DNA of 64,000 bases from Phenylobacterium sp. J367 (GTDB lineage Bacteria > Pseudomonadota > Alphaproteobacteria > Caulobacterales > Caulobacteraceae). Below the pieces are notes generated by a model. It saw nothing but the letters and a program-made list of their open reading frames with translations. It made no database searches and was not told the origin of the DNA. The stretch lies in the NCBI RefSeq assembly GCF_024699985.1, contig NZ_JAJONA010000001.1:2046001-2110000 (forward strand), given 5' to 3'. The translations under genes were made by a program, and so were the position numbers. This document shows, piece after piece, positions 2 to 16,503 of this stretch (position 1 is the stretch's first letter; each line of letters begins with the position of its first letter).

Positions 2-1441
2 GCGCTCCGGCTTAACTGGTTAAACATCTGCCCCCCGACAGGAACTGGCGTAAAGTTAGTATCAGACGATCTTTTTCGCACGCCGCTTGAACAGCCGGAG
101 ATCGACTTCGAAAACGAAGGTGGTGAAACTTATATCTGCGGAAATCCTCCGTTCAAAGGAGCTCGGAAGCAAACGAGGGCGCAAAAGGAGGACATGGATT
201 TCGTATTCGGAGGTGGAAACGCCTATAAGGACTGCGACTACGTGACCGCATGGTTCTTGAAAGCGTCTGAGTATTCAAATCACACCCATACGAAGTTCGC
301 TTTCGTTTCCACAAACTCAATATCCCAGGGCGAACAGGTCCAGCACCTTTGGGAGCGGCTCTATCAGAACGGCGATTCTATTATTTTCTGCCATACGAAG
401 TTTAGATGGTCCAATAGCGCATCTAACAACGCCGGTGTTTGGTGTGTTATAGTCGGCGTGGGGCGCGATAGATCCTCTCAAAGAATCATCTTTACTGGCG
501 ACACGCGCCGTTCGGTCACGACGATTTCCCCCTATCTAATTCCGGGTGAAGAAGATTTCATCCGCAAGGCGGATGCTCCGCTTTCAGCAGACATGCCCAA
601 ACTCGTCTCCGGGAACATGGCCAGAGACGATGGCGGTCTCATTTTGGAGAACGCCGAGCGGGACGCATTAATCGCGGAGTTCCCTGAGGCGCGAAAGTTC
701 CTGAAGCCACTGATTGGAACAAGTGAAGTTCGGCAAAGCACTCGCCGCTGGTGCCTATGGCTCGAAGACTCCGACGTGGACAAAGCCTTGGCGATCCCTC
801 CGTTGCGGGCACGAATAGCTCATGTGCGTGCTTTTCGGACCGCCTCCTCGGCAAAGACGACGCAGGCTTACGCAAAGATTGCTCATAAGTTCGCTCAGCG
901 ATCCCACCAACGGAGTCCGTCCATTGTCGTCCCAAAGAACACTACAGACGAGATAAAATACGTTACTCCAATCTACGTCGATGAATATACCATTACGACA
1001 GATCTTGCGTTTGTCAGCTACACCTCCGAGCTATGGACGTTGGCAGTTATCGCATCGACTCTACACAGAGTGTGGACGGCGGCCATATCGGGCGGGCTGG
1101 GTTCAGGTATTCGCTACTCATCCCAGCTTACCTATAACTCCTTCCCGCTTCCTGCACTGACGGCGAAGCAGAAGGCGGACCTAAGCGCATGTGCTGCTGA
1201 CATTCTGCTCGCGCGCGAAGCGCAGTTCCCAGCCTCACTCGCGGATATTTATGACCAAGACGAGCTGCCACTAGATATTCAGGCCGCTCACGAGCGTAAC
1301 GATGAGGTCTTAGAGCGCATCTATATCGGGCGGCGGTTTCGGAATGACACCGAGCGGCTAGAGAAGTTGTTTGAGCTATACACTAAGCTCACCAAAGGGG
1401 CTGGTGCGGCGAAAAGGCGGAAGGCGGGGGCGAGCGCATGA
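2..1441 (+). CDS. DNA N6-adenine methyltransferase, MmeI-like C-terminal part (5' end outside window)
   Basis: This is the C-terminal 479 residues of a DNA methyltransferase whose start lies left of the window. The frame is open from base 2, and catalytic motif IV, NPPF, is encoded at 143-154. That is upstream of the first in-frame ATG at 194, so the ATG is internal. A target-recognition-like region follows, then a helical tail with SLADIYD and LPLDIQAAHERND, as in MmeI-like (type IIL) and related single-chain methyltransferases. SAM motif I and any N-terminal nuclease domain cannot be seen. The stop overlaps the helicase ATG (ATGA), implying translational coupling. Base composition is visibly more A+T-rich than in the helicase gene behind it. 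Adenine methylation follows from family membership; the target sequence is unknown. Confidence 0.85.
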   Translation, partial: ALRLNWLNICPPTGTGVKLVSDDLFRTPLEQPEIDFENEGGETYICGNPPFKGARKQTRAQKEDMDFVFGGGNAYKDCDYVTAWFLKASEYSNHTHTKFAFVSTNSISQGEQVQHLWERLYQNGDSIIFCHTKFRWSNSASNNAGVWCVIVGVGRDRSSQRIIFTGDTRRSVTTISPYLIPGEEDFIRKADAPLSADMPKLVSGNMARDDGGLILENAERDALIAEFPEARKFLKPLIGTSEVRQSTRRWCLWLEDSDVDKALAIPPLRARIAHVRAFRTASSAKTTQAYAKIAHKFAQRSHQRSPSIVVPKNTTDEIKYVTPIYVDEYTITTDLAFVSYTSELWTLAVIASTLHRVWTAAISGGLGSGIRYSSQLTYNSFPLPALTAKQKADLSACAADILLAREAQFPASLADIYDQDELPLDIQAAHERNDEVLERIYIGRRFRNDTERLEKLFELYTKLTKGAGAAKRRKAGASA

Positions 1442-3495
1442 CGAAAGAAGTTAAATCGGTCCCGTCCGTTTCGGTCTCTTATGCCCGGAGCGGCAGCTCA
1501 ACCAAGGCCAACGCTCTAGGGATGCGGCCGATGCAAGAGCGCGCCTACGAGAAACGGGGCGAACAATACCTGCTCATCAAGTCCCCTCCCGCTTCGGGAA
1601 AAAGCCGCGCGCTCATATTCATCGCGCTCGACAAGCTCGCGAACCAGAGCCTGAAGCAAGCAATCATTGTCGTGCCGGAAAAGTCCATCGGCGCGAGCTT
1701 CAATGACGAGCTGCTGACCAGATTCGGCTTCTGGGCCGACTGGCGGGTGGAGCCGAAATGGAACCTCTGCAACGCGCCTGGCTCCGATAACGGCGGCAAG
1801 GTCAGCTCCGTCGGCGCCTTCCTTGAGAGCGATGACCAGGTGCTGGTCTGCACCCATGCGACGTTCCGGTTCGCCGTGGACAAGTTCGGCGTAGAGGCTT
1901 TCGACGACCGCCTGATCGCCGTGGATGAGTTTCACCACGTCTCCGCGAACCCGGACAACAAGCTCGGCCTGCACCTCGGCCAGTTCATCGCCCGAGACCG
2001 CACCCACATCGTCGCCATGACCGGATCCTACTTCCGGGGAGACGCCGAGGCCGTTCTTATGCCGCACGACGAGGCGCGGTTCGAGACCGTCACCTACACC
2101 TACTACGAGCAATTGAACGGCTACGAGCACCTCAAACAGCTCGACATCGGCTATTTCTTCTATTCGGGCTCCTACGCCGACGACATTCTAAAGGTGCTCG
2201 ATCCAGCCGAGAAGACCATCGTCCACATCCCAAGCGTGAACTCCCGCGAGAGCACTAAGGATAAGATCCGGGAGGTCGAGCACATCATCGACGCCCTGGG
2301 GGTGTGGCAGGGAACGGACCCGGCGACGGGGTTCCAGCTTGTCAGGACGACGGATGGTCGGGTCCTGCGGATCGCCGACCTCGTGGACGACGACCCTGGC
2401 AAGCGCGACCGAGTGTCAGCGGCCCTGAAGGACCCGGCTCAGAAGAACAATCGCGACCATGTGGACATCATCATCGCCTTGGGCATGGCGAAGGAAGGCT
2501 TCGACTGGATCTGGTGCGAGCACGCGCTGACGGTCGGCTATCGTTCCAGCCTGACGGAGATCGTGCAGATCATCGGTCGCGCCACCAGGGACGCGCCCGG
2601 CAAGACTCGCGCCCGCTTCACCAACCTCATCGCCGAGCCCGACGCGGCCGAGGCGGCGGTCACTGAGGCCGTGAACGACACGCTGAAGGCCATCGCCGCC
2701 AGCTTGCTCATGGAGCAGGTGCTGGCGCCGCGCTTTGAGTTCAAGCCGAAGAACCCCACCAATGAGGCCACGCCAGGCTTCGACTACGGCGAGGGCGGCT
2801 ATGATCCGGAGAAGTGCAACGTCGGCTTCAACGAAGAGACGGGTCGCTTCCAAATTGAGATCAAGGGCCTAGTCGAGCCGAAGAGCCCGGAGGCGGCTCG
2901 CATCTGCCGGGAAGACCTGAACGAGGTGATCGCCAGCTTCGTCCAGGACAAGGGGACCATCGAACGGGGCCTGTTCGATGAGGAACTCGTGCCAGAGGAA
3001 CTCACCCAGGCGCGCCTGGGCAAGATCATCAAGGACCGATACCCGGAACTCGACGATGAGGACCAAGAGGCGGTGCGCCAGCACGCCATCGCCGCCCTCA
3101 ACCTGACGCAGCAGGCCAAGCAGGCTGTGCTGAACAACGGCGGTGCGGAGGCGGCTGGAAACACCGCCCTCATCGACGGCGTCCGGCGTTTCGCCATGGA
3201 CGTGCGCGAACTCGATATCGATCTGATCGACCGGATCAATCCGTTCGGAGAGGCATATGCGATCCTCGCCAAGACCATGAGCGAGGACAGCCTGAAGCAG
3301 GTGGCGGCAGCTATCGCCGCCAAGCGCACCAGCCTCTCGCCGGAGGAGGCCAAAGATCTCGCGCTCCGGGCGGTCAAGTTCAAGAAGGAGCGAGGGCGGC
3401 TCCCCTCCATCAGTTCGACCGATGCATGGGAGAAGCGAATGGCGGAGGGCGCCGCCGCGTTCGTCCGCTTCAAGGACGAGGGCCGCTATGACTGA
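1438..3495 (+). CDS. DEAD/DEAH-box (SF2) helicase of a methyltransferase-linked defence-type operon
   Basis: A 685-residue superfamily 2 helicase/translocase. Walker A is SPPASGKS at about residues 49-56, motif II is DEFHH at 163-167 (a DExH variant), AMTGS at about 196 is motif III, and QIIGRATRDAPGK at about 377 is the arginine-finger motif VI. The C-terminal 250 residues are not recognisable as a nuclease. The tail (GRLPSISSTDAWEKRMAEG) resembles a short helical module also present at the start of the next protein. The gene overlaps the methyltransferase by 4 bases and the GIY-YIG gene by 8, so the three are probably made together. The inferred role is ATP-driven translocation in a restriction-like complex; no substrate is shown by the sequence. 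Confidence 0.88.
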   Translation: MTKEVKSVPSVSVSYARSGSSTKANALGMRPMQERAYEKRGEQYLLIKSPPASGKSRALIFIALDKLANQSLKQAIIVVPEKSIGASFNDELLTRFGFWADWRVEPKWNLCNAPGSDNGGKVSSVGAFLESDDQVLVCTHATFRFAVDKFGVEAFDDRLIAVDEFHHVSANPDNKLGLHLGQFIARDRTHIVAMTGSYFRGDAEAVLMPHDEARFETVTYTYYEQLNGYEHLKQLDIGYFFYSGSYADDILKVLDPAEKTIVHIPSVNSRESTKDKIREVEHIIDALGVWQGTDPATGFQLVRTTDGRVLRIADLVDDDPGKRDRVSAALKDPAQKNNRDHVDIIIALGMAKEGFDWIWCEHALTVGYRSSLTEIVQIIGRATRDAPGKTRARFTNLIAEPDAAEAAVTEAVNDTLKAIAASLLMEQVLAPRFEFKPKNPTNEATPGFDYGEGGYDPEKCNVGFNEETGRFQIEIKGLVEPKSPEAARICREDLNEVIASFVQDKGTIERGLFDEELVPEELTQARLGKIIKDRYPELDDEDQEAVRQHAIAALNLTQQAKQAVLNNGGAEAAGNTALIDGVRRFAMDVRELDIDLIDRINPFGEAYAILAKTMSEDSLKQVAAAIAAKRTSLSPEEAKDLALRAVKFKKERGRLPSISSTDAWEKRMAEGAAAFVRFKDEGRYD

Positions 3496-4705
3496 CCTCG
3501 ACCTCGACGACCTGCGGGCCGAACTCGATGAGTTCGCCCAACCTGAGAAGAAGAACGGCCGTTCGCCTCGGGAGGAGCGCATCATCGCTGGCTTCGAGGA
3601 AATCCAGCGTTTCGTTGAGCACCACGGCCACCCGCCCATGCATGGCGAAGATAGAGACATCTTCGAGCGACTCTACGCCGTCCGCCTGGACCGGATTCGC
3701 GCCCTGGAAGAGTGCCGCACCGTGCTGGCTCCGCTTGACCACCAGGGACTCTTGGACGGCGCCGGCTCTGACGCCGAGGCTCCGGTGGAAACCATGGATG
3801 ACGACGAGCTTCTCGCAGAGTTGGAGGGGGCGGCTGGCTCGGCCGACATCACCAAGCTTCGTCATGTTCGCACCAGCGCGGAGAAGCGTGCCGCCGAGGA
3901 GATCGCCAATCGCGAGGTCTGCGAGGATTTCGATCAGTTCAAGCCGCTGTTCGAGCGGGCCGAGAGCGATCTGAAGAGCGGCGTGCGGTCAACGCGGCGG
4001 TTCGGCCAGGATGCGAGCATCGCTACCGGCGAGTTCTTCATCCTGGGCGGCCAGATGGCCTATGTCGCCCACACCGGAGAGACCATACGCGCTCCGAACG
4101 GAGAAACGGATGCACGCCTCCGGGTGATCTTCGGCAACGGGACGGAGAGCAACCTGCTGCGCCGCTCCCTCCAGCGAGCCCTCTACAAGGATGAGGCTGG
4201 CCGCAGGCTGACTGATCCGAACGCAGGGCCGCTGTTCGACGAGGGGTTTGAGGACCCGCCAGAAGCGGTGTTCGGCGGCGTAGCCGAGGACAGCGATGTC
4301 GAGAGCGGGAGCATCTACGTTTTACGCAGCAAGTCGGACCACCCCGCCGTTGAGGCCAACAGGCACGTCCTCCACAAGATCGGCGTGACGGGCGGCGACG
4401 TGCAGCGGCGCCTGGCCAACGCGAAGCTCGATCCGACCTTCCTCATGGCTGAGGTAGAGACCATCGCCACCTACGACCTCTACAACATCAACCGGGCCAG
4501 GCTTGAGAACCTCATCCATCGGGTCTTCGCCCCGGCGCGGCTGAACATCGAGATCAAGGATCGTTTCGGCCAGCCGGTGATTCCGCGTGAGTGGTTCCTG
4601 GTTCCGGTGTTCGTGATCGACGAGGCGGTTGAGCGGATCAAGGACGGCACGATCACCGGGTATGTCTACGATCCGGGGCAAGCAAAGCTGGTGCGGATCG
4701 CTTGA
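3488..4705 (+). CDS. GIY-YIG (T5orf172-type) nuclease family protein
   Basis: A 405-residue protein starting at the ATG inside the helicase stop region (ATGACTGA). A longer frame upstream exists but would run through the helicase gene. The N-terminal third is acidic and helical, with HGHPPMHGEDRDIFERLYA at about residues 41-60. The C-terminal 130 residues look like a GIY-YIG domain of the T5orf172/MUG113 type: SIYVLRS takes the place of GIY, HKIGVTGG takes the place of YIG, followed by a basic stretch and RLENLIHRVF with the expected Glu. It is the likely cleaving subunit of the operon, the helicase and methyltransferase having no other visible nuclease. The family call is fairly secure; the role is inference. 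Confidence 0.8.
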   Translation: MTDLDLDDLRAELDEFAQPEKKNGRSPREERIIAGFEEIQRFVEHHGHPPMHGEDRDIFERLYAVRLDRIRALEECRTVLAPLDHQGLLDGAGSDAEAPVETMDDDELLAELEGAAGSADITKLRHVRTSAEKRAAEEIANREVCEDFDQFKPLFERAESDLKSGVRSTRRFGQDASIATGEFFILGGQMAYVAHTGETIRAPNGETDARLRVIFGNGTESNLLRRSLQRALYKDEAGRRLTDPNAGPLFDEGFEDPPEAVFGGVAEDSDVESGSIYVLRSKSDHPAVEANRHVLHKIGVTGGDVQRRLANAKLDPTFLMAEVETIATYDLYNINRARLENLIHRVFAPARLNIEIKDRFGQPVIPREWFLVPVFVIDEAVERIKDGTITGYVYDPGQAKLVRIA

Positions 4706-8085: not shown

Positions 8086-8559
8086 TCATCCGACGTAGGT
8101 CACCGGATCGAACTCCTGCCCATGGAAAGAGACCGAGGTCACCCGGTTCATGCTGCGGGTCTCGATCAGACCGTTGGTCAGCATCGAGCCAACCAGCCCT
8201 GAAGCCATGGCCTCGCCCAGCCGCCAGCACGCAGCCGGTGGCAACCAGATCACCGTCTCGAACTCGCCCTTCGTCGCCTTGATGTAGCCGATCCACTTCC
8301 GCCGAACGTCGTCCTCGTCGAGCAGCTTGTGATCGACGAAGGCGGGCTCGGGATGCAGCGTCGCCTTGCTCTCCCGACCTTTGAACCGATCTGGCCAGAT
8401 GCACTCGGCGACGAGGTGGGTCGTCTCGCTCTCGTCGAAAGGCCGCCACTCCCGCCGCCTCCGATCATGCTCGATCCCGAAGTGATAACTGAGCGACGGC
8501 ACCCGGATCTGGAAGACGAACTCCTCATGCGTCGGCGCCGCCTTCTTGGGTCTGGCCAT
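8086..8559 (-). CDS. Hypothetical protein, 157 aa
   Basis: Translation from ATG 8559 gives MARPKKAAPTHEEFVFQ; an upstream in-frame extension is arginine-rich and unlikely. The protein is soluble, with FHFDES-like acidic/aromatic stretches, ECIWPDRFKGRESKATLHPEP, and WIGYIKATKGEFETVIWLPP. No signal peptide or known motif is visible. It may be a small structural or metal-free beta protein; nothing supports a specific function. It is divergent from the HEPN gene, with 178 bases between them that could hold two promoters. Confidence 0.55.
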   Translation of the reverse strand: MARPKKAAPTHEEFVFQIRVPSLSYHFGIEHDRRRREWRPFDESETTHLVAECIWPDRFKGRESKATLHPEPAFVDHKLLDEDDVRRKWIGYIKATKGEFETVIWLPPAACWRLGEAMASGLVGSMLTNGLIETRSMNRVTSVSFHGQEFDPVTYVG

Positions 8560-8737
8560 GTTGACCTCACGTAAGAACGCGCATCGCTGCCGTCGGCGCG
8601 TCGCGCTAGTGAGCCCCAACCCGTCGTCGGCGACAATCTGGGTAGCCGTGATTGTCCATGGGTGCAGCGAAGGCTGTTCTTCACCGCCTGCGGCGCGGAA
8701 AGTGGCGGCAGCACACCCGAATCATTGGGCTACCTTC

Positions 8738-9961
8738 ATGAGTTCAGTCCCTAAGGGATTGCGGTCAAAGGTGGACGCTCTCCTGGCGTCCATCGTCCCC
8801 CTCTATGAGGTCACTGAGGACGGCGGGCTCCGCACCAGCAGCTTCAGCATAAGGCTGTATGAGGGCGCGCTAATCCAGCTACTCGACGTGGCGGCCAGCG
8901 GCCTTACGGCGACTGACTTTGAGCACTGCGCTTGGAGGGCGGTCATGACCACGATCAAGGCGCGGGCCACCTCATGCTCGGAGTTAGAGCAAAACCTGAG
9001 CGAGGAAATCGCTTCCTTCAAACGCAAGCGACGTTCGCCATTCCGCATCTGTTCACGCTGCCACTTCTCTATCCCGCACGACTACCGGCTCGACATTGAG
9101 CTTTGGGGCGCGAGACTTACCATCACACAGGCACCACCTGATGGCGGGCTCTCCCCCGAACAGCCCCGGTTGCTGAATGGTCGCACGGCATTCGCCGATC
9201 CGGAGTTCGGGGCCTATCTCACAATGACGGTCTATGAACGAACGAAGAGCGGAGCCTTAGACCGAGCTACGCATGACATCGCTTTTCTGCTCGGCCTGCT
9301 CAACTTTACGCTCAATCTTGGCAATCTGAGTTGGACGTTGTTCAACGGTGAGAGGCAGATGAGCGTTAAGGTTTTCCCGGGGCGCGAAGTTTTCCTGCTC
9401 AACGCAGATGGTGTGGCCGATGTCGATGTCTGGCGTTACTACACGACTTACCCAACCACTGCGAAAAAACTTTCCGATGGTGAACTGAGGAAGCTTGAGC
9501 AGCACGTAAAGATCATCGAGCGATTAAACCGACTCAAAAAGGGAGATCGAGCTTTTTACCGCTCCTTTTTTGAACTCTATTTCGACGCGCTAAGCGAAGT
9601 GGACGCTGACACCGTTGTGATGCGGCTGTGGAAAGCCGCCGAACACATAACAATGGGACAATCCGCCCAGCACATCGCCAACCGGCTCGCGCTAACCTGG
9701 TCGGACAAGGAGGCTGTAAGCGCGGTTTGCTACGCCTTGGGTCAGCGTCGGAACTGGATCATGCATAACACCAGGCCCGCACCTCAGATTGAGGAGTTGC
9801 CTGCGCTCTTCCGGCATTTCTTGGAGAACTCAGCCTGGAAATCACTGTCCCCTGACGTAAGGGGCGTGGAGCACTGGAAGGCCATTATGCAGATGTCGGA
9901 CATCGAAATGGATCTCGACTTGGCTGCCGATGCAGTCAGCATCCTGAAGGCACTGCGCTGA
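8738..9961 (+). CDS. HEPN-type protein with an RX4H motif (candidate RNase)
   Basis: A 407-residue soluble protein; I use ATG 8738 because the upstream in-frame reading is low-quality. The C-terminal part contains LWKAAEHITMG followed by RRNWIMHNT at residues 337-345, so Arg338 and His343 form the RX4-6H signature of HEPN domains, with Asn right after Arg as is usual for catalytic members. The surrounding layout resembles ApeA-like HEPN proteins. The long N-terminal part carries a CSRC pair and no family I know. HEPN proteins are often toxin or anti-phage RNases; that role here is inference from motif and island location. Codon use is more A+T-rich than in the chromosome to the right. Confidence 0.65.
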   Translation: MSSVPKGLRSKVDALLASIVPLYEVTEDGGLRTSSFSIRLYEGALIQLLDVAASGLTATDFEHCAWRAVMTTIKARATSCSELEQNLSEEIASFKRKRRSPFRICSRCHFSIPHDYRLDIELWGARLTITQAPPDGGLSPEQPRLLNGRTAFADPEFGAYLTMTVYERTKSGALDRATHDIAFLLGLLNFTLNLGNLSWTLFNGERQMSVKVFPGREVFLLNADGVADVDVWRYYTTYPTTAKKLSDGELRKLEQHVKIIERLNRLKKGDRAFYRSFFELYFDALSEVDADTVVMRLWKAAEHITMGQSAQHIANRLALTWSDKEAVSAVCYALGQRRNWIMHNTRPAPQIEELPALFRHFLENSAWKSLSPDVRGVEHWKAIMQMSDIEMDLDLAADAVSILKALR

Positions 9962-10130
9962 AGTTTGGCTGCGCCCTCCGTTCCTACTCATGTGCGTGTT
10001 GGAGCCCGTCCAAAACAGTGTCACAAACGGTGCGAACCTAGAGATCGAGCCTGTCGATTGGACTGATTTTACGTCGTTTTCTGAATGGCGGGTCACCTCC
10101 TAGTTCCCCAGCCACTTCTTCCCCCTATCC

Positions 10131-10884
10131 CTAGGCGTCCGCCGCGCGGCGGAAGACGAACACCTCGCCGGTATCGCCGAGGCGCGTCGCCGGCCGGTCG
10201 AGCGCCAGACCCGAGGCCTCGGCGAGGGGGACCGGATGGGCCAGGTAATAGGTGAGTTGCTCGCGCCGCCGCTCGGCGCCCGACACATAGTCCAGCGCCA
10301 GGCTGAAGCGGCCGATGTCAGGCCGGAACGCCTTCTCCGCCACATACAGCGTCAGGGTCCGGCCATCCGGCAGGACGTGCCGCGCAACCGGCTGGTCCGG
10401 CGGTGGGGCGGGGCCCTGCATGCGCTCGGCCAGCGGCAGGTGGAAGGCGGCGAGGCCGCCGGGCCTGAGATGCTTCGCCACGCCCTTGAAGGTGTTCCGC
10501 CAGGCGGTTCCGGCCGGCAGGTGCGCCAGGCCAAAGAACGGGCAGATCACCGCGTCGTACACGGTCCCCAGCGCCAGCGAGGCCATGTCCCCCCGCCGGT
10601 AGTCGATCCGCGCGGCGACCTCGTCCGGCAGGGGCCCGGCGCTTGGCCTCGGCCTGGGCGAGCATACTGGGCGCCAGCTCGACGCCGGTCACCACGAAAC
10701 CCCGCGCTGCCAGCGCCTCGGCGATCCGGCCGGTGCCGGACCCGAGCTCCAGGATCCTGCCGCCCTCCGGGGCCAGGCCCGCATAGAGTTCCACGTCGCC
10801 GTCCAGCGAGCGGTCGGCGGCTGTGATCAGGTCGTAGAACTCGGCGGAGGCGCCGCCTTGGGCATAGTAGGGCCGGGCTTTCAT
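10131..10884 (-). pseudogene. Class I SAM-dependent methyltransferase, frameshifted
   Basis: The N-terminal half (from ATG 10884) has EFYDLI and the SAM-binding motif ILELGSGTGRIAEALA, followed by VTGVELAPSMLAQA. After the G run at 10631-10634 the frame turns to junk, while the neighbouring frame continues correctly with RIDYRRGDMASLALG and VYDAVICPFFGLAHL down to the stop at 10131. Removing one base of the run joins the halves into about 250 residues. The substrate is unknown; the fold is that of small-molecule methyltransferases. One-base damage in a homopolymer suggests a sequence error. Confidence 0.75.
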
Positions 10885-11021
10885 CGGCCTCCCGACTAGC
10901 ACGGCGCGGCGAAGCCCTACTGTAGTTTTGCGTAATGGTCCGGCGCGGCCGTGCGGGTGAAAGCTCTACCGCAGATGGCCGGCGCGCAGCCTGGCCTTGT
11001 GGATCAGCCAGGAGCCGCCCG

Positions 11022-11468
11022 ATGACCGCCGTCGCCTTCGCCACCGTTCGCAGCAGCGAGATCTCCGATCCCCACGCCCATCCGGTGGACCGCCATGTCG
11101 GCATGCGCATGCGCCTGCGCCGCAAGGCCCTGGGCATCAGCCAGGACCGCCTGGCCGCGGCGCTCGGCATGACCTTCCAGCAGGTGCAGAAATACGAGCG
11201 CGGCACGAACCGGGTCAGCGCTTCCAAGCTCTGGGAAGCCGCCCGCGCGCTCAAGACCACGGTGAGCTGGTTCTACGAAGGGCTGCCGGAGGACGACGGC
11301 GAGGTCGCCACCTCGCCGAACGAGGGCTTCCTCTCCAGCAACGACGGTCTCGACCTGGCCCGCGCCTTCCCGGACATCGGCGACGCCCGGACGCGCCGCA
11401 AGATCGTGGAGCTGGTCCGCGCGCTGGCCGACGCCGAAGCCGACCGCCTCGACGGCGTCGCGGCCTAG
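11022..11468 (+). CDS. XRE-family helix-turn-helix transcriptional regulator
   Basis: A 148-residue protein from ATG 11022, preceded by a good Shine-Dalgarno (AGGAG). Residues about 26-80 are a classic Cro/CI-type helix-turn-helix (MRLRRKALGISQDRLAAALG, FQQVQKYERGTNRVSASKL). The C-terminus is acidic then helical (RKIVELVRALADAEAD). This short form is common and multi-copy in Caulobacterales, often near cell-cycle or stress genes. Its targets are not visible. It is convergent with the patatin gene, only 7 bases apart. Confidence 0.85.
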   Translation: MTAVAFATVRSSEISDPHAHPVDRHVGMRMRLRRKALGISQDRLAAALGMTFQQVQKYERGTNRVSASKLWEAARALKTTVSWFYEGLPEDDGEVATSPNEGFLSSNDGLDLARAFPDIGDARTRRKIVELVRALADAEADRLDGVAA

Positions 11469-11475
11469 CGCGACG

Positions 11476-12729
11476 TCAGGGGACGCTCGCGTTTGGCCCG
11501 TACCCCGGCGGGACCTTGTCCCAGGGATATCCCGTCGCCGCCATGGTCTGGCCGAGCTCGAACAGCGCCTTCATGTAGGCCGGATCGAACTCCCCGTGCC
11601 GCTCGGCGGTGAAGCGGCTCGGAATGTACGCCAGATTGTAGTCGATGCCGTCCCGGCGTGAGGTGATGTACATCCTCATCAGGTCGCCGATCCCTTGCGT
11701 CTGGATCATCGAGGCCACCGCGCGCCCGGCGATGCTGAGCGTGCGGCGGTCGACGCTGGCCCAGTCCGGGTCGAGCCGGGCGTTCATGATGATGTAGACG
11801 CGCCGTTCGCGGGCCCGGGCCTCGGCGGCCAGGGCCTCGTTCAGGTGCAGCCGCTGCGGGTACATGAACACCTGGCGGGTGGCTCCGCCGTCGACGTGCA
11901 TCTCCTGATAGCGCTGGCCGTCGACGGTCACGTCGATCATCACCGGCGGGAAGGCGCCCGGGATCGCGGCCGAGGCCAGGGTGATCTGCCGGAAGAGCTT
12001 CAGCGCGGTCTCGTCGCCCTGGGTGGCGATGCGGCCCATGTCCCAGTAGACCGCCTCGCGCGCGTCGAGGTTGGTCGTGCCGACCATCAGCAGCCGGCCC
12101 TTGGCGTATTCGCCGGCGATCGCCCTCAGCAGGTCGGGTGTCACGTACTGGGCGATCAGCCCGGCCATAGGCGTCGTGTCGGTGAGCGCGTCGCCCCAGA
12201 TGGCGGCGGTGAAGTGGCGCTTCTTGAAAATGTCGGCGTCGGTGGTGCGGGTGTAGGCGACGTGCAGGGTCGCGTCGTGGTCCGGCCCGAGGAAGGCGAA
12301 GGGCGCGATCAGGGCGCCGGTGCTGACCCCCGTGACCATTTTGAACGAGGGCCGGTCGCCCGCCCTGGTCCAGCCGGCCAGCAGGCCGGCCCCGAAGGCC
12401 CCGTCGCCGCCGCCGCCGGACACCGCGAGAATCTGCGCGGGGGGAAGCGGACCCCTATGGCCCTGGCTGCTCAACCAGGCGCGCTCCCGCTCCATCGCCG
12501 TCGCCCCCAGCCGCTCGAAGGGCTCGGGATCGCGGTCGGGCAGGAAGCGCACGCCGGGGATGGAGGCCTCGGCCCGGGCGGTGGCCGCCGCCGGCACCGC
12601 CAGGCCCTCGCGCGTCGTTCCGCAGGCCGCCAGCGCCAGGGGTGCCGCGGCGATAAGGGCGCGGCGGTCGAGCCGCCGCGCCACGGCTCGGCCGCGGCGG
12701 GGGTTGTCCCGATCGTCAGACGCCCCCAT
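11476..12729 (-). CDS. Patatin-like phospholipase, putative lipoprotein
   Basis: A 417-residue patatin-family lipid acyl hydrolase. The N-terminus has RRLDRRALIAAAPLALAACG, a lipobox with Cys36, so it is probably a membrane-anchored lipoprotein. The oxyanion-hole loop SGGGGDGAFG is at about 105-113, the nucleophile elbow GVSTG at 134-138 (Ser136), and the partner Asp in HVDGGATR. Family chemistry is hydrolysis of acyl esters of phospholipids. I start at ATG 12729 to place the signal near the N-terminus. It lies 111 bases downstream of the exported amidohydrolase and could be the last gene of that unit. Confidence 0.85.
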   Translation of the reverse strand: MGASDDRDNPRRGRAVARRLDRRALIAAAPLALAACGTTREGLAVPAAATARAEASIPGVRFLPDRDPEPFERLGATAMERERAWLSSQGHRGPLPPAQILAVSGGGGDGAFGAGLLAGWTRAGDRPSFKMVTGVSTGALIAPFAFLGPDHDATLHVAYTRTTDADIFKKRHFTAAIWGDALTDTTPMAGLIAQYVTPDLLRAIAGEYAKGRLLMVGTTNLDAREAVYWDMGRIATQGDETALKLFRQITLASAAIPGAFPPVMIDVTVDGQRYQEMHVDGGATRQVFMYPQRLHLNEALAAEARARERRVYIIMNARLDPDWASVDRRTLSIAGRAVASMIQTQGIGDLMRMYITSRRDGIDYNLAYIPSRFTAERHGEFDPAYMKALFELGQTMAATGYPWDKVPPGYGPNASVP

Positions 12730-15462: not shown

Positions 15463-16503
15463 TCAGACGGGCTTCACCGCGTAGGGGTTGCCCCCCAGCG
15501 CGTTGGAGATGTCGCTGATCGCCCGCTGGCCGCGGACGCTGTTGCCGGCGGCGTCCAGCGGCGGCGCGAAGGTGCCGATGCCGAACTTGCCGGGCGAGAC
15601 GGCGATCAGCCCGCCGCCGACGCCGCTCTTGGCGGGCAGGCCGGCGTGGAAGAGCCACTTGCCGCTGTCGTCGTAGAGACCGGCCGTGGCCATGACCGCC
15701 AGGATGCCGGGCACGTACTTCGGATCGATGACCTGCTTCTTGGTCAGCGGGTTCTTGCCGCCGTTGGCCAGCGTCGCGGCCATGTTGCCGAGATCCTTGG
15801 CGTTCACGGCGATGGCGCACTGGCGGGTGTAGATGTCGGTGGCCACCGCCGGGTCGCTCTTGAACCGCTCATAGGCCCACATCAGGGCGCCGATCGCCCG
15901 GTTGCGCTGGTTGGTGTCGGCCTCCGACTTGTAGACCACCTCGTCCACGTCGAGCTGGCGGCCGGCGAAGTCCGAGTGGATCGCCAGGATCTTCCGCCAG
16001 ACCTCGTCGGGCGTGCCCTTGACCATGCCGGTGGTGGCGATCGCGCCCGGGTTGACCAGCGGGTTCATCTCCTTGCCGCGGAACTGCTCGACCGCGACGA
16101 TGGAATTGAACACCTGGCCGGTGGCGTCGACGCCGACGGCGTTCTCCACCAGGTCCGCGCCGCTCTCCTGGAAGACCAGGGCCATGGTGAAGACCTTGGA
16201 GATCGACTGGATCGAGAACTTCGGCTCGATGTCGCCGGCGGTGGAGAGCTGGCCTTGCGGCGTGGCCAACGCGATGCCGAAGTAGTTCGATGGCACCTGG
16301 GCGAGCGCCGGGATGTAGTCCGCGTTCTTGCCCTCGTTGAGGCCCTTGTACTTCTCATAGGCCGCCTTGACGGCGGCATCGACGTTGGCCCCGCCGCGCT
16401 GGGCGGAGGCCGGTGCGGTGACGGCGGCGCCGGCGGTGAGGCCGAGGCCGAGCGCGGCGAGACCCCGGGCGAGGTCGCGGCGCGAAGCATGGGTTTGCAT
16501 CAT
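15463..16503 (-). CDS. glsA: Glutaminase A, Tat-exported
   Basis: A 346-residue serine-dependent glutaminase (L-glutamine to L-glutamate plus ammonia). The active-site SxxK is Ser100 and Lys103 in SIQSISKVF; MNPLVNPGAIAT, SEADTNQRNRAIG and KSGVGGGLIAV are further glutaminase-family blocks. Unusually it begins with a twin-arginine-like signal, SRRDLARGLAALGLGL followed by an AxA-type site (APASAQ), so it should act in the periplasm, whereas most GlsA proteins are cytosolic. Start ATG 16503 was chosen because it places the RR motif near the N-terminus. It lies 26 bases after the DcaP-like gene and 14 before the porin, clearly one operon. Confidence 0.9.
   Translation of the reverse strand: MMQTHASRRDLARGLAALGLGLTAGAAVTAPASAQRGGANVDAAVKAAYEKYKGLNEGKNADYIPALAQVPSNYFGIALATPQGQLSTAGDIEPKFSIQSISKVFTMALVFQESGADLVENAVGVDATGQVFNSIVAVEQFRGKEMNPLVNPGAIATTGMVKGTPDEVWRKILAIHSDFAGRQLDVDEVVYKSEADTNQRNRAIGALMWAYERFKSDPAVATDIYTRQCAIAVNAKDLGNMAATLANGGKNPLTKKQVIDPKYVPGILAVMATAGLYDDSGKWLFHAGLPAKSGVGGGLIAVSPGKFGIGTFAPPLDAAGNSVRGQRAISDISNALGGNPYAVKPV

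What the first reader, a model, noticed from the sequence alone, without database searches (positions are those of the whole stretch)
2..4705. Methyltransferase-helicase-GIY-YIG nuclease operon: a candidate little-described restriction-like system
Three genes overlap by 4 and 8 bases: an MmeI-like adenine methyltransferase (motif IV NPPF visible), a DExH helicase, and a protein ending in a T5orf172-type GIY-YIG domain. Type I systems use HsdR with a PD-(D/E)XK nuclease, type IIL uses one fused chain, and BREX/DISARM have other subunits. Here cleavage would rest on a GIY-YIG protein, which I do not recognise as a named defence system. Overlaps and motifs are seen directly; the restriction role is inferred.
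Basis: partly seen in the sequence, partly recalled or inferred. Interest (0 to 1): 0.75.

Follow-up and report, generated by a model that had tools for sequence, protein, structure and literature searches.

The report
Three-gene restriction system with swappable targets
A mobile bacterial DNA island carries a known but barely tested three-gene set (a DNA-marking enzyme, a DNA motor and a DNA cutter) that probably destroys unmarked foreign DNA, and related genomes show the part that reads the target sequence being swapped while the motor and cutter stay much the same.

Summary
The window holds the last part of an MmeI-family adenine methyltransferase, then a DExH helicase and a T5orf172/GIY-YIG protein, overlapping by 4 and 8 bp. 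The whole methyltransferase (920 aa, read from the host genome) has all five MmeI domains but not the PD-(D/E)XK signature: 20 of 20 stand-alone family members carry it at residues 65-114, none of 80 complete trio members does there. The set is not undescribed: it is the DnmA(YeeA)-YeeB-YeeC cluster, published for Bacillus subtilis, once suggested to be Type I-like, and found inactive there; a Vibrio version is reported to affect phage sensitivity. Of the 80 nearest relatives 76 hold all three genes in order; the other four stop at contig edges. New here: among operons with helicase >90% and nuclease >80% identical, 29 of 31 pairs have recognition domains only 35-54% identical, with sharp DNA boundaries in the pairs profiled, and similar domains recur in different operons. 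So motor and cutter seem not to carry their own specificity, as in Type I. The methyltransferase-helicase junction is often a cargo slot (RhuM, YhcG, AlbA, toxin genes). The trio lies on a 17.45-kb tRNA-Gln island. Restriction is untested for this locus.

The parts
2..1441 (+). MmeI-family N6-adenine methyltransferase (DnmA/YeeA-like), last 479 codons and stop; the whole gene is genome C1:2044679-2047441 (920 aa)
119..1228 (+). approximate specificity cassette (MTase residues 481-850), the segment that differs between otherwise near-identical operons; lower GC3 (58.9) than the gene core (79.0) and the helicase (83.9)
   Evidence: boundaries approximate and taken from relatives
545..1159 (+). 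MmeI target recognition domain (PF20466), within the cassette
1438..3495 (+). SF2 DExH helicase (YeeB-like), 685 aa, intact Walker A, DEFHH and QIIGRATR motifs
3488..4705 (+). GIY-YIG (T5orf172/MUG113) protein (YeeC-like), 405 aa; GIY-YIG domain about residues 272-405
10098..10114 (+). 17-bp direct repeat of the 3' end of the tRNA-Gln gene at L002:8665-8681; probable right end (att-like) of the 17,450-bp island that carries the trio

Best explanation
The three genes are one ATP-dependent, Type I-like restriction-modification system of the DnmA-YeeB-YeeC kind. The MmeI-like methyltransferase reads an asymmetric site with its TRD and methylates an adenine on self DNA. On unmethylated foreign DNA the same subunit (or a complex around it) recruits or licenses the YeeB-like SF2 motor, which works along the DNA, and the GIY-YIG protein makes the cut. 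Shown by sequence: the three genes, their intact motifs, their linkage, absence of the MTase's own nuclease motif, and change of the TRD segment while motor and nuclease stay nearly constant. Inferred: methylation at this locus, translocation, cleavage, complex formation, phage restriction.
For: Linkage: 76 of the 80 nearest helicase relatives hold MTase, helicase and GIY in order, the other four stopping at contig edges; 20 of 20 regions fetched out of 28 hit genomes. Own nuclease lost: D-x9-E-x-K in the first 220 residues in 20 of 20 stand-alone MmeI-family proteins (residues 65-114) against 1 of 80 complete trio proteins, that one at residue 159, with 5% expected in shuffles. GIY-YIG catalytic residues invariant in 25 of 25. 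Specificity changes without the effectors: 29 of 31 pairs with helicase >90% and GIY >80% have TRDs of 35-54%; 11 of 12 helicase clusters of two or more loci hold more than one TRD type and 10 of 10 TRD clusters span more than one helicase cluster; DNA boundaries in 8 of 8 profiled pairs. RhuM, one of the cargo families, sits in Type I hsd operons in 4 of 7 plasmid regions viewed. Enrichment of defence families and a Vibrio phage phenotype are reported in PMC9973331 (passages).
Against: In B. subtilis deletions of dnmA, yeeB or yeeC did not change infection by three phages, deletion of dnmA did not change plasmid uptake, and phages do not avoid the site (passages of PMC9973331 and PMC7261158). 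Some relatives look broken: the methyltransferase in L102 and L129, the GIY gene in L100 and L133, the helicase in L085. No cleavage, translocation or complex has been shown. Near-zero correlation of TRD with helicase or GIY identity is also what sequence-nonspecific effectors would give. The cited Vibrio result was seen only second-hand.
Confidence: 0.65

Rival explanations
1. The methyltransferase is what is kept (an epigenetic regulator), and helicase and GIY-YIG are remnants of a dead restriction system, as proposed for B. subtilis.
For: B. subtilis phenotypes: no effect on phage or plasmid uptake, methylation affects promoters (passages). A few relatives have a broken gene (L085, L100, L102, L129, L133).
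Against: In the aligned sets helicase and GIY active-site residues are invariant; in 61 of 80 loci methyltransferase and GIY are complete ORFs; the helicase is the best conserved of the three (median 82.9% to the window, methyltransferase 61.5%, GIY 64.0%); the TRD keeps changing, which suits defence better than a fixed regulatory mark.
Confidence: 0.15
2. A CglI/NgoAVII-like system: the nuclease subunit reads its own target and the helicase drives it, with a separate protective methyltransferase.
For: Same three functions in three genes (abstract of PMC4267653); the GIY protein has an extra middle domain with weak Tudor/KOW-like fold matches (Z 4 to 5.4).
Against: If the nuclease read its own site it should change with the TRD; it does not (29 of 31 close pairs; rank correlations -0.03 to 0.10). 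No PLD hit; the nuclease is GIY-YIG.
Confidence: 0.12
3. A stand-alone Type IIL/IIG enzyme (as the PADLOC model names it) that cuts by itself, next to unrelated genes.
For: PADLOC model REase_MTase_IIG hits the window part at 1.2e-142; all five MmeI Pfam domains in the whole protein.
Against: Catalytic motif absent; alignment to MmeI starts only at its residue 106; constant linkage to helicase and GIY genes.
Confidence: 0.04
4. The GIY-YIG gene is a homing-type or mobile nuclease that merely sits beside a methyltransferase and a helicase.
For: A paper on mobile phage nucleases uses the word T5orf172 82 times (search listing only, PMC10448857).
Against: GIY sequence lies directly behind the helicase in 79 of 80 loci, the missing one being a contig end; two of the 79 are fragments.
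Confidence: 0.04

Closest known systems
DnmA-YeeB-YeeC cluster (Bacillus subtilis; PMC7261158, PMC9973331, passages)
   Same: MmeI-like MTase without nuclease motif, then SF2 helicase, then T5orf172/GIY-YIG protein, in that order; low-GC mobile setting; conserved synteny reported for homologues.
   Different: Here on a tRNA-Gln island of an unnamed high-GC host. The B. subtilis set showed no restriction; its YeeB and YeeC are reported to lack C-terminal stretches present in Vibrio. Direct sequence comparison with the B. subtilis proteins was not made.
Type IIL MmeI
   Same: MTase, TRD, spacer and C-terminal domains; 461-bit match to 5hr4.
   Different: No PD-(D/E)XK motif; presumably needs partners.
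Type I R-M (HsdRMS)
   Same: Motor in a separate gene from the MTase; recognition segment changing while the rest stays; at least one cargo family (RhuM) shared between the loci.
   Different: No HsdS; TRD fused to the MTase; nuclease is GIY-YIG in a third protein instead of PD-(D/E)XK fused to the motor.
CglI/NgoAVII (PMC4267653, abstract and one section)
   Same: Separate MTase, helicase and nuclease proteins.
   Different: PLD nuclease there, GIY-YIG here; no sign that the nuclease carries the specificity here.

Membership tests
DnmA-YeeB-YeeC | MmeI-like MTase lacking the N-terminal nuclease motif | tested here: met
DnmA-YeeB-YeeC | SF2 helicase directly downstream | tested here: met
DnmA-YeeB-YeeC | T5orf172/GIY-YIG protein as next gene, same strand | tested here: met
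DnmA-YeeB-YeeC | sequence homology to the B. subtilis proteins themselves | not tested
   B. subtilis proteins were not fetched; indirect: an Acetobacter plasmid protein 69.9% identical to the helicase is annotated YeeB, and the control genome B. subtilis rings for PF20464
DnmA-YeeB-YeeC | site-specific m6A methylation | not testable with these tools
   needs methylome sequencing
Type IIL (MmeI) | PD-(D/E)XK nuclease in the same chain as MTase and TRD | tested here: not met
   the window's protein and the other complete trio MTases (80 in all) lack D-x9-E-x-K at the place where 20 of 20 stand-alone members have it; one has a match at residue 159
Type I R-M | separate specificity subunit HsdS | tested here: not met
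   TRD is fused to the MTase; the two genes behind it are helicase and GIY
Type I R-M | HsdR: motor and PD-(D/E)XK nuclease in one chain | tested here: not met
   helicase chain has no nuclease Pfam hit up to E 1; GIY-YIG is a separate protein
Type I R-M (works like) | restriction uses the modification module's specificity | tested here: inconclusive
   indirect support only: effectors constant while the TRD changes
CglI/NgoAVII | PLD-superfamily nuclease R-protein | tested here: not met
   third protein hits only MUG113 and T5orf172
BREX / DISARM | PglZ-BrxC or DrmA-DrmB partners | tested here: inconclusive
   none among the neighbouring ORFs scanned; not every ORF was scanned; DrmMI models score far below the IIG model

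The most novel reading that the evidence does not exclude
DnmA-YeeB-YeeC systems are a modular, ATP-dependent class of restriction-modification with a GIY-YIG cutter: a near-constant motor-nuclease pair is re-aimed by exchange of a ~1.1-kb recognition cassette inside the methyltransferase gene, and the operon gathers further defence or addiction genes in a slot behind the methyltransferase, in at least one case with repeated copies of the methyltransferase 3' end between successive cargos.
Probability: 0.55. Interest if true: 0.68.

Novelty: new member of a known kind. Interest (0 to 1): 0.5.

Why it matters
A recurrent gene set (28 of 398 sampled genomes of the phylum have a match to the nuclease protein at E <= 0.001) is filed by one model as a Type IIG enzyme or, from one species, as a relic. 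The swap pattern gives a direct test of whether motor and cutter take their target from the methyltransferase. If so, this would be a restriction system whose specificity can be changed by replacing one cassette, with a nuclease family other than that of HsdR. The cargo slot is a place to look for further defence genes.

Tried and rejected
Empty-site test: the right flank (window 10099-11600) was searched in 30 genomes of the genus, the host's own among them (29 had some match); eight matching places in other genomes were fetched and ARAGORN found no tRNA gene in any of them, so an uninterrupted site could not be shown; the island rests on the 17-bp repeat, the integrase-like ORF and GC. Fold of the GIY protein: Foldseek found no PDB match at E <= 0.001; VIA-align gave weak Tudor/KOW-like matches for residues about 171-242 and Slx1 (Z 5.0, rmsd 5.2, 99 aligned) for the GIY part; not used as evidence. 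The helicase model (mean pLDDT 70.4) matches many SF2 proteins alike, HsdR of EcoR124I among them (Z 13.5, rmsd 5.6, 317 aligned); not discriminating. phmmer found no PDB sequence relative of helicase (E <= 0.1) or GIY protein (E <= 1). Papers on Zymomonas restriction, phosphorothioation, BREX and E. coli defence that surfaced in searches gave no description of the trio in the passages looked at. A search for RhuM/YhcG in Type I operons listed no paper on that subject. Ten ORFs of the island were compared with the 80 related loci: only the resolvase (4 loci) and the integrase-like ORF (1) had matches.

Limits of the counts. In one search, 75 of 80 had methyltransferase and GIY ORF matches; L090 was added after tblastn. 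Of the 76 ORF-level methyltransferase matches (L098, without GIY, included) 15 cover under 90%: 9 run off the contig start, L098, L121 and L124 lie near it, L089 is whole by tblastn, and L102 and L129 look broken. GIY is a fragment in L100 and L133, and the helicase ORF is short in L085. Of the 28 genomes with a nuclease match, one is the host and 20 were fetched; all 20 show the three genes, the methyltransferase incomplete in what was read in five (L044, L047, L050, L055, L056). Of the other seven, three short loci show helicase and GIY only (L026, L028, L030; for the last an MmeI_N match lies upstream on the same contig and strand), and four weak or partial matches were not examined. The 20 stand-alone MmeI proteins are 20 of the 46 places, chosen as not belonging to known trios; in 3 (L168, L169, L173) the contig ends right behind the gene, so absence of a helicase there is untested, and many are distant (about 21-29% identical). 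The eight DNA profiles were chosen among pairs whose proteins already showed a divergent TRD; they show boundaries, not frequency. Pairs of loci are not independent; the cluster counts are the safer figures. Cargo: 43 of 53 mechanical ORFs in the gaps were scanned, ten mostly short ones being left out; some gaps hold no convincing gene (e.g. L111). Six further papers that mention yeeB and yeeC (listing) were not opened.
Full report
Observation. Pfam places them as MmeI methyltransferase/TRD/C-terminal domains, DEAD/ResIII helicase, and MUG113/T5orf172 (GIY-YIG). The window is G000:C1:2046001-2110000; the missing 5' part was read from the genome. The full methyltransferase is L003:4679-7441, 920 aa, with MmeI_N, MmeI_hel, MmeI_Mtase, MmeI_TRD and MmeI_C. 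SAM motif I (DPACGSGNF) and NPPF are present by eye (motif names recalled).

Is there a nuclease in the missing part? None was found. The alignment to MmeI (5hr4, 461 bits) begins at MmeI residue 106. As a control, 20 of the 46 MmeI_N-family places listed were fetched as candidates for stand-alone enzymes; none of the 20 stretches holds a helicase or GIY relative, though in three of them the contig ends right behind the gene. All 20 carry D-x9-E-x-K, at residues 65-114, in contexts such as IDLFWKGVLLVEQK. Among 80 complete trio methyltransferases (window included) the pattern occurs once in the first 220 residues, at residue 159 of L054; shuffled N-termini give it in 5.0%. In a MAFFT alignment with five of the stand-alone proteins (three printed) the trio proteins have a gap where the aspartate-bearing stretch lies. 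That this motif is the MmeI active site is recalled; PMC7261158 also says that DnmA belongs to MmeI homologues lacking the endonuclease motif (passage). PADLOC's REase_MTase_IIG model nevertheless hits the window part at 1.2e-142, so automatic annotation may name it wrongly.

Does the trio recur? In 75 an ORF search finds methyltransferase, helicase and GIY sequence in order on one strand; in L090 the methyltransferase is found by tblastn: 76 of 80. In L068, L136 and L137 the contig begins 75-1,078 bp upstream of the helicase; L098 ends with it. In 61 of the 80 methyltransferase and GIY are both covered to 90% or more by one ORF; most others are cut by contig starts, but L102 and L129 (methyltransferase), L100 and L133 (GIY) and L085 (helicase) look broken. 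The record titles name Alpha-, Beta-, Gamma- and Deltaproteobacteria, Bacillota (Tumebacillus, Cohnella, Paenibacillus, Fictibacillus), cyanobacteria and others, with helicase identities of 77-87%, which speaks for horizontal spread. In a separate sample 28 of 398 genomes of the phylum have a GIY-protein match (25 of 337 of good quality); in the 20 regions fetched, all 20 have the three genes, five with an incompletely read methyltransferase. On plasmids the GIY protein matches 225 of 72,556 records and the three annotated regions looked at show the trio.

What is known. By domains and order the set is DnmA(YeeA)-YeeB-YeeC. From passages of PMC7261158: DnmA methylates GACGAG; Morgan et al. 2009 (not held; seen only as cited) included it among MmeI homologues without nuclease motif next to yeeB/yeeC-like genes, and a Type I-like system was suggested; dnmA deletion does not affect growth or plasmid transformation. 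From passages of PMC9973331: the cluster is conserved, neighbourhoods are enriched in defence families (1.8 against 0.56 genes), deletions of single genes did not affect three phages, the site is not avoided by phages, the authors call it a relic; homologues in Vibrio crassostreae (Piel et al., not held; seen only as cited) affect sensitivity to some phages. In the listings of my other searches (and 23-24 apart from these two papers) I saw no further description of the trio; six listed papers that mention yeeB and yeeC were not opened, and this is a statement about one open-licence library. The words 'target recognition' and 'TRD' have no occurrence in PMC9973331.

New evidence on how it works. 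I aligned the three proteins of 80 complete trios (61 of the scan loci, 18 others, and the window). Median identity to the window: methyltransferase N-terminal 75.5%, catalytic 64.8%, TRD 31.9%, C-terminal 70.5%; helicase 82.9%; GIY 64.0%. Of 31 pairs with helicase >90% and GIY >80%, 29 have TRDs of 35-54% (the other two 79 and 100%). Conversely, of 20 pairs with TRD >70%, 18 have GIY proteins of only 58-70%. In 2,379 pairs with helicase >75%, rank correlations of TRD identity with five regions of helicase and GIY lie between -0.03 and 0.10 (with the neighbouring catalytic domain 0.48). By clusters, 11 of 12 helicase groups (>90%) with two or more loci hold more than one TRD type, one of them eight types in eight loci, and 10 of 10 TRD groups (>70%) span several helicase groups. 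At DNA level eight chosen pairs show well-conserved flanks (mostly 80-100%) and a fall to mostly 41-66% between about nt 1,500 and 2,400 of the methyltransferase gene (in L062/L063 only from about nt 1,800). The segment has lower GC3 than the gene's core in 60 of 61 loci (median 53.0 against 70.6), and in the window operon 58.9 against 79.0, with helicase 83.9. The simplest reading is replacement of a recognition cassette by recombination in conserved flanks; fast divergence alone would not put similar TRDs into different operons. Diversified specificity in the MmeI family is known (passage of PMC3874165); what it adds here is that motor and nuclease do not follow it. A nuclease with its own target reading should.

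Cargo slot. Of 76 loci with an ORF-matched methyltransferase, 33 have less than 120 bp before the helicase (as in the window) and 43 have more. Of 53 ORFs found in these gaps 43 were scanned with Pfam: five are RhuM, five DUF1016/YhcG nucleases, five Schlafen/AlbA_2 proteins, two BrnT, two PIN, and singly HepT-like, GmrSD_N and DUF559, among others. RhuM relatives on plasmids: 61 records; of seven regions viewed, four lie inside Type I hsd operons, one between a helicase and a methyltransferase gene, two elsewhere; in one hsd operon a PDDEXK nuclease gene sits between hsdM and hsdS as well. Shared cargo in the same kind of place supports likeness to Type I loci; it does not prove it. In L121 (a Leptolyngbyaceae contig) four copies of the methyltransferase 3' end (63-85% identical to a reference copy over 138 nt) alternate with successive cargo genes, and L047 has one extra copy (109 nt, 91%). 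This suggests that cargos arrive with, or recombine at, the methyltransferase 3' end; two loci are not enough to say which.

Setting. Upstream, a tRNA-Gln gene (L002:8608-8681) is followed by a 570-aa integrase-like ORF (8766-10478; its C-terminal RHTF motif is recalled as that of tyrosine recombinases, and Pfam gives only a sub-threshold DUF6538 hit). The last 17 bp of the tRNA gene recur once in the 80 kb examined, at window 10098-10114. The 17,450 bp between have 61.5% GC against 71.1% and 70.6% outside. So the trio probably rides on an island. An empty site in relatives was not found.

Conclusion. The negative tests in B. subtilis and a few broken relatives stand against a general claim of activity. 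The swap pattern is the main result and turns the question of where specificity lies into a simple exchange experiment.

Noticed in passing
G000:C1 2038665 (L002:8665) to window 10114: 17,450-bp probable genomic island at a tRNA-Gln gene with a 17-bp att-like repeat, an integrase-like ORF and GC 61.5% against about 71% outside.
   Followed up: yes
L121:1-4700: Four degenerate copies of the methyltransferase 3' end alternate with toxin-antitoxin-like and other cargo genes in front of the helicase (Leptolyngbyaceae contig).
   Followed up: partly
L047:12683-12791 and 16036-16144: Second copy (109 nt, 91%) of the methyltransferase 3' end inside a 7.3-kb cargo region.
   Followed up: partly
L003:3326-4402 (+): 358-aa ORF just upstream of the methyltransferase, no Pfam hit, no match in the 80 related loci.
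   Followed up: partly
window 8546-9961 (+): 471-aa ORF without Pfam match in the island's right part; function unknown.
   Followed up: no
PADLOC model PDLC03598 on window 2-1438: The Type IIG model scores 1.2e-142 on a methyltransferase whose nuclease motif is absent, so defence annotation may miscount such loci as complete IIG enzymes.
   Followed up: yes
GIY protein residues about 171-242 (window about 3998-4213): Predicted small beta-barrel with weak Tudor/KOW-like matches (Z 4 to 5.4), a possible docking domain.
   Followed up: partly
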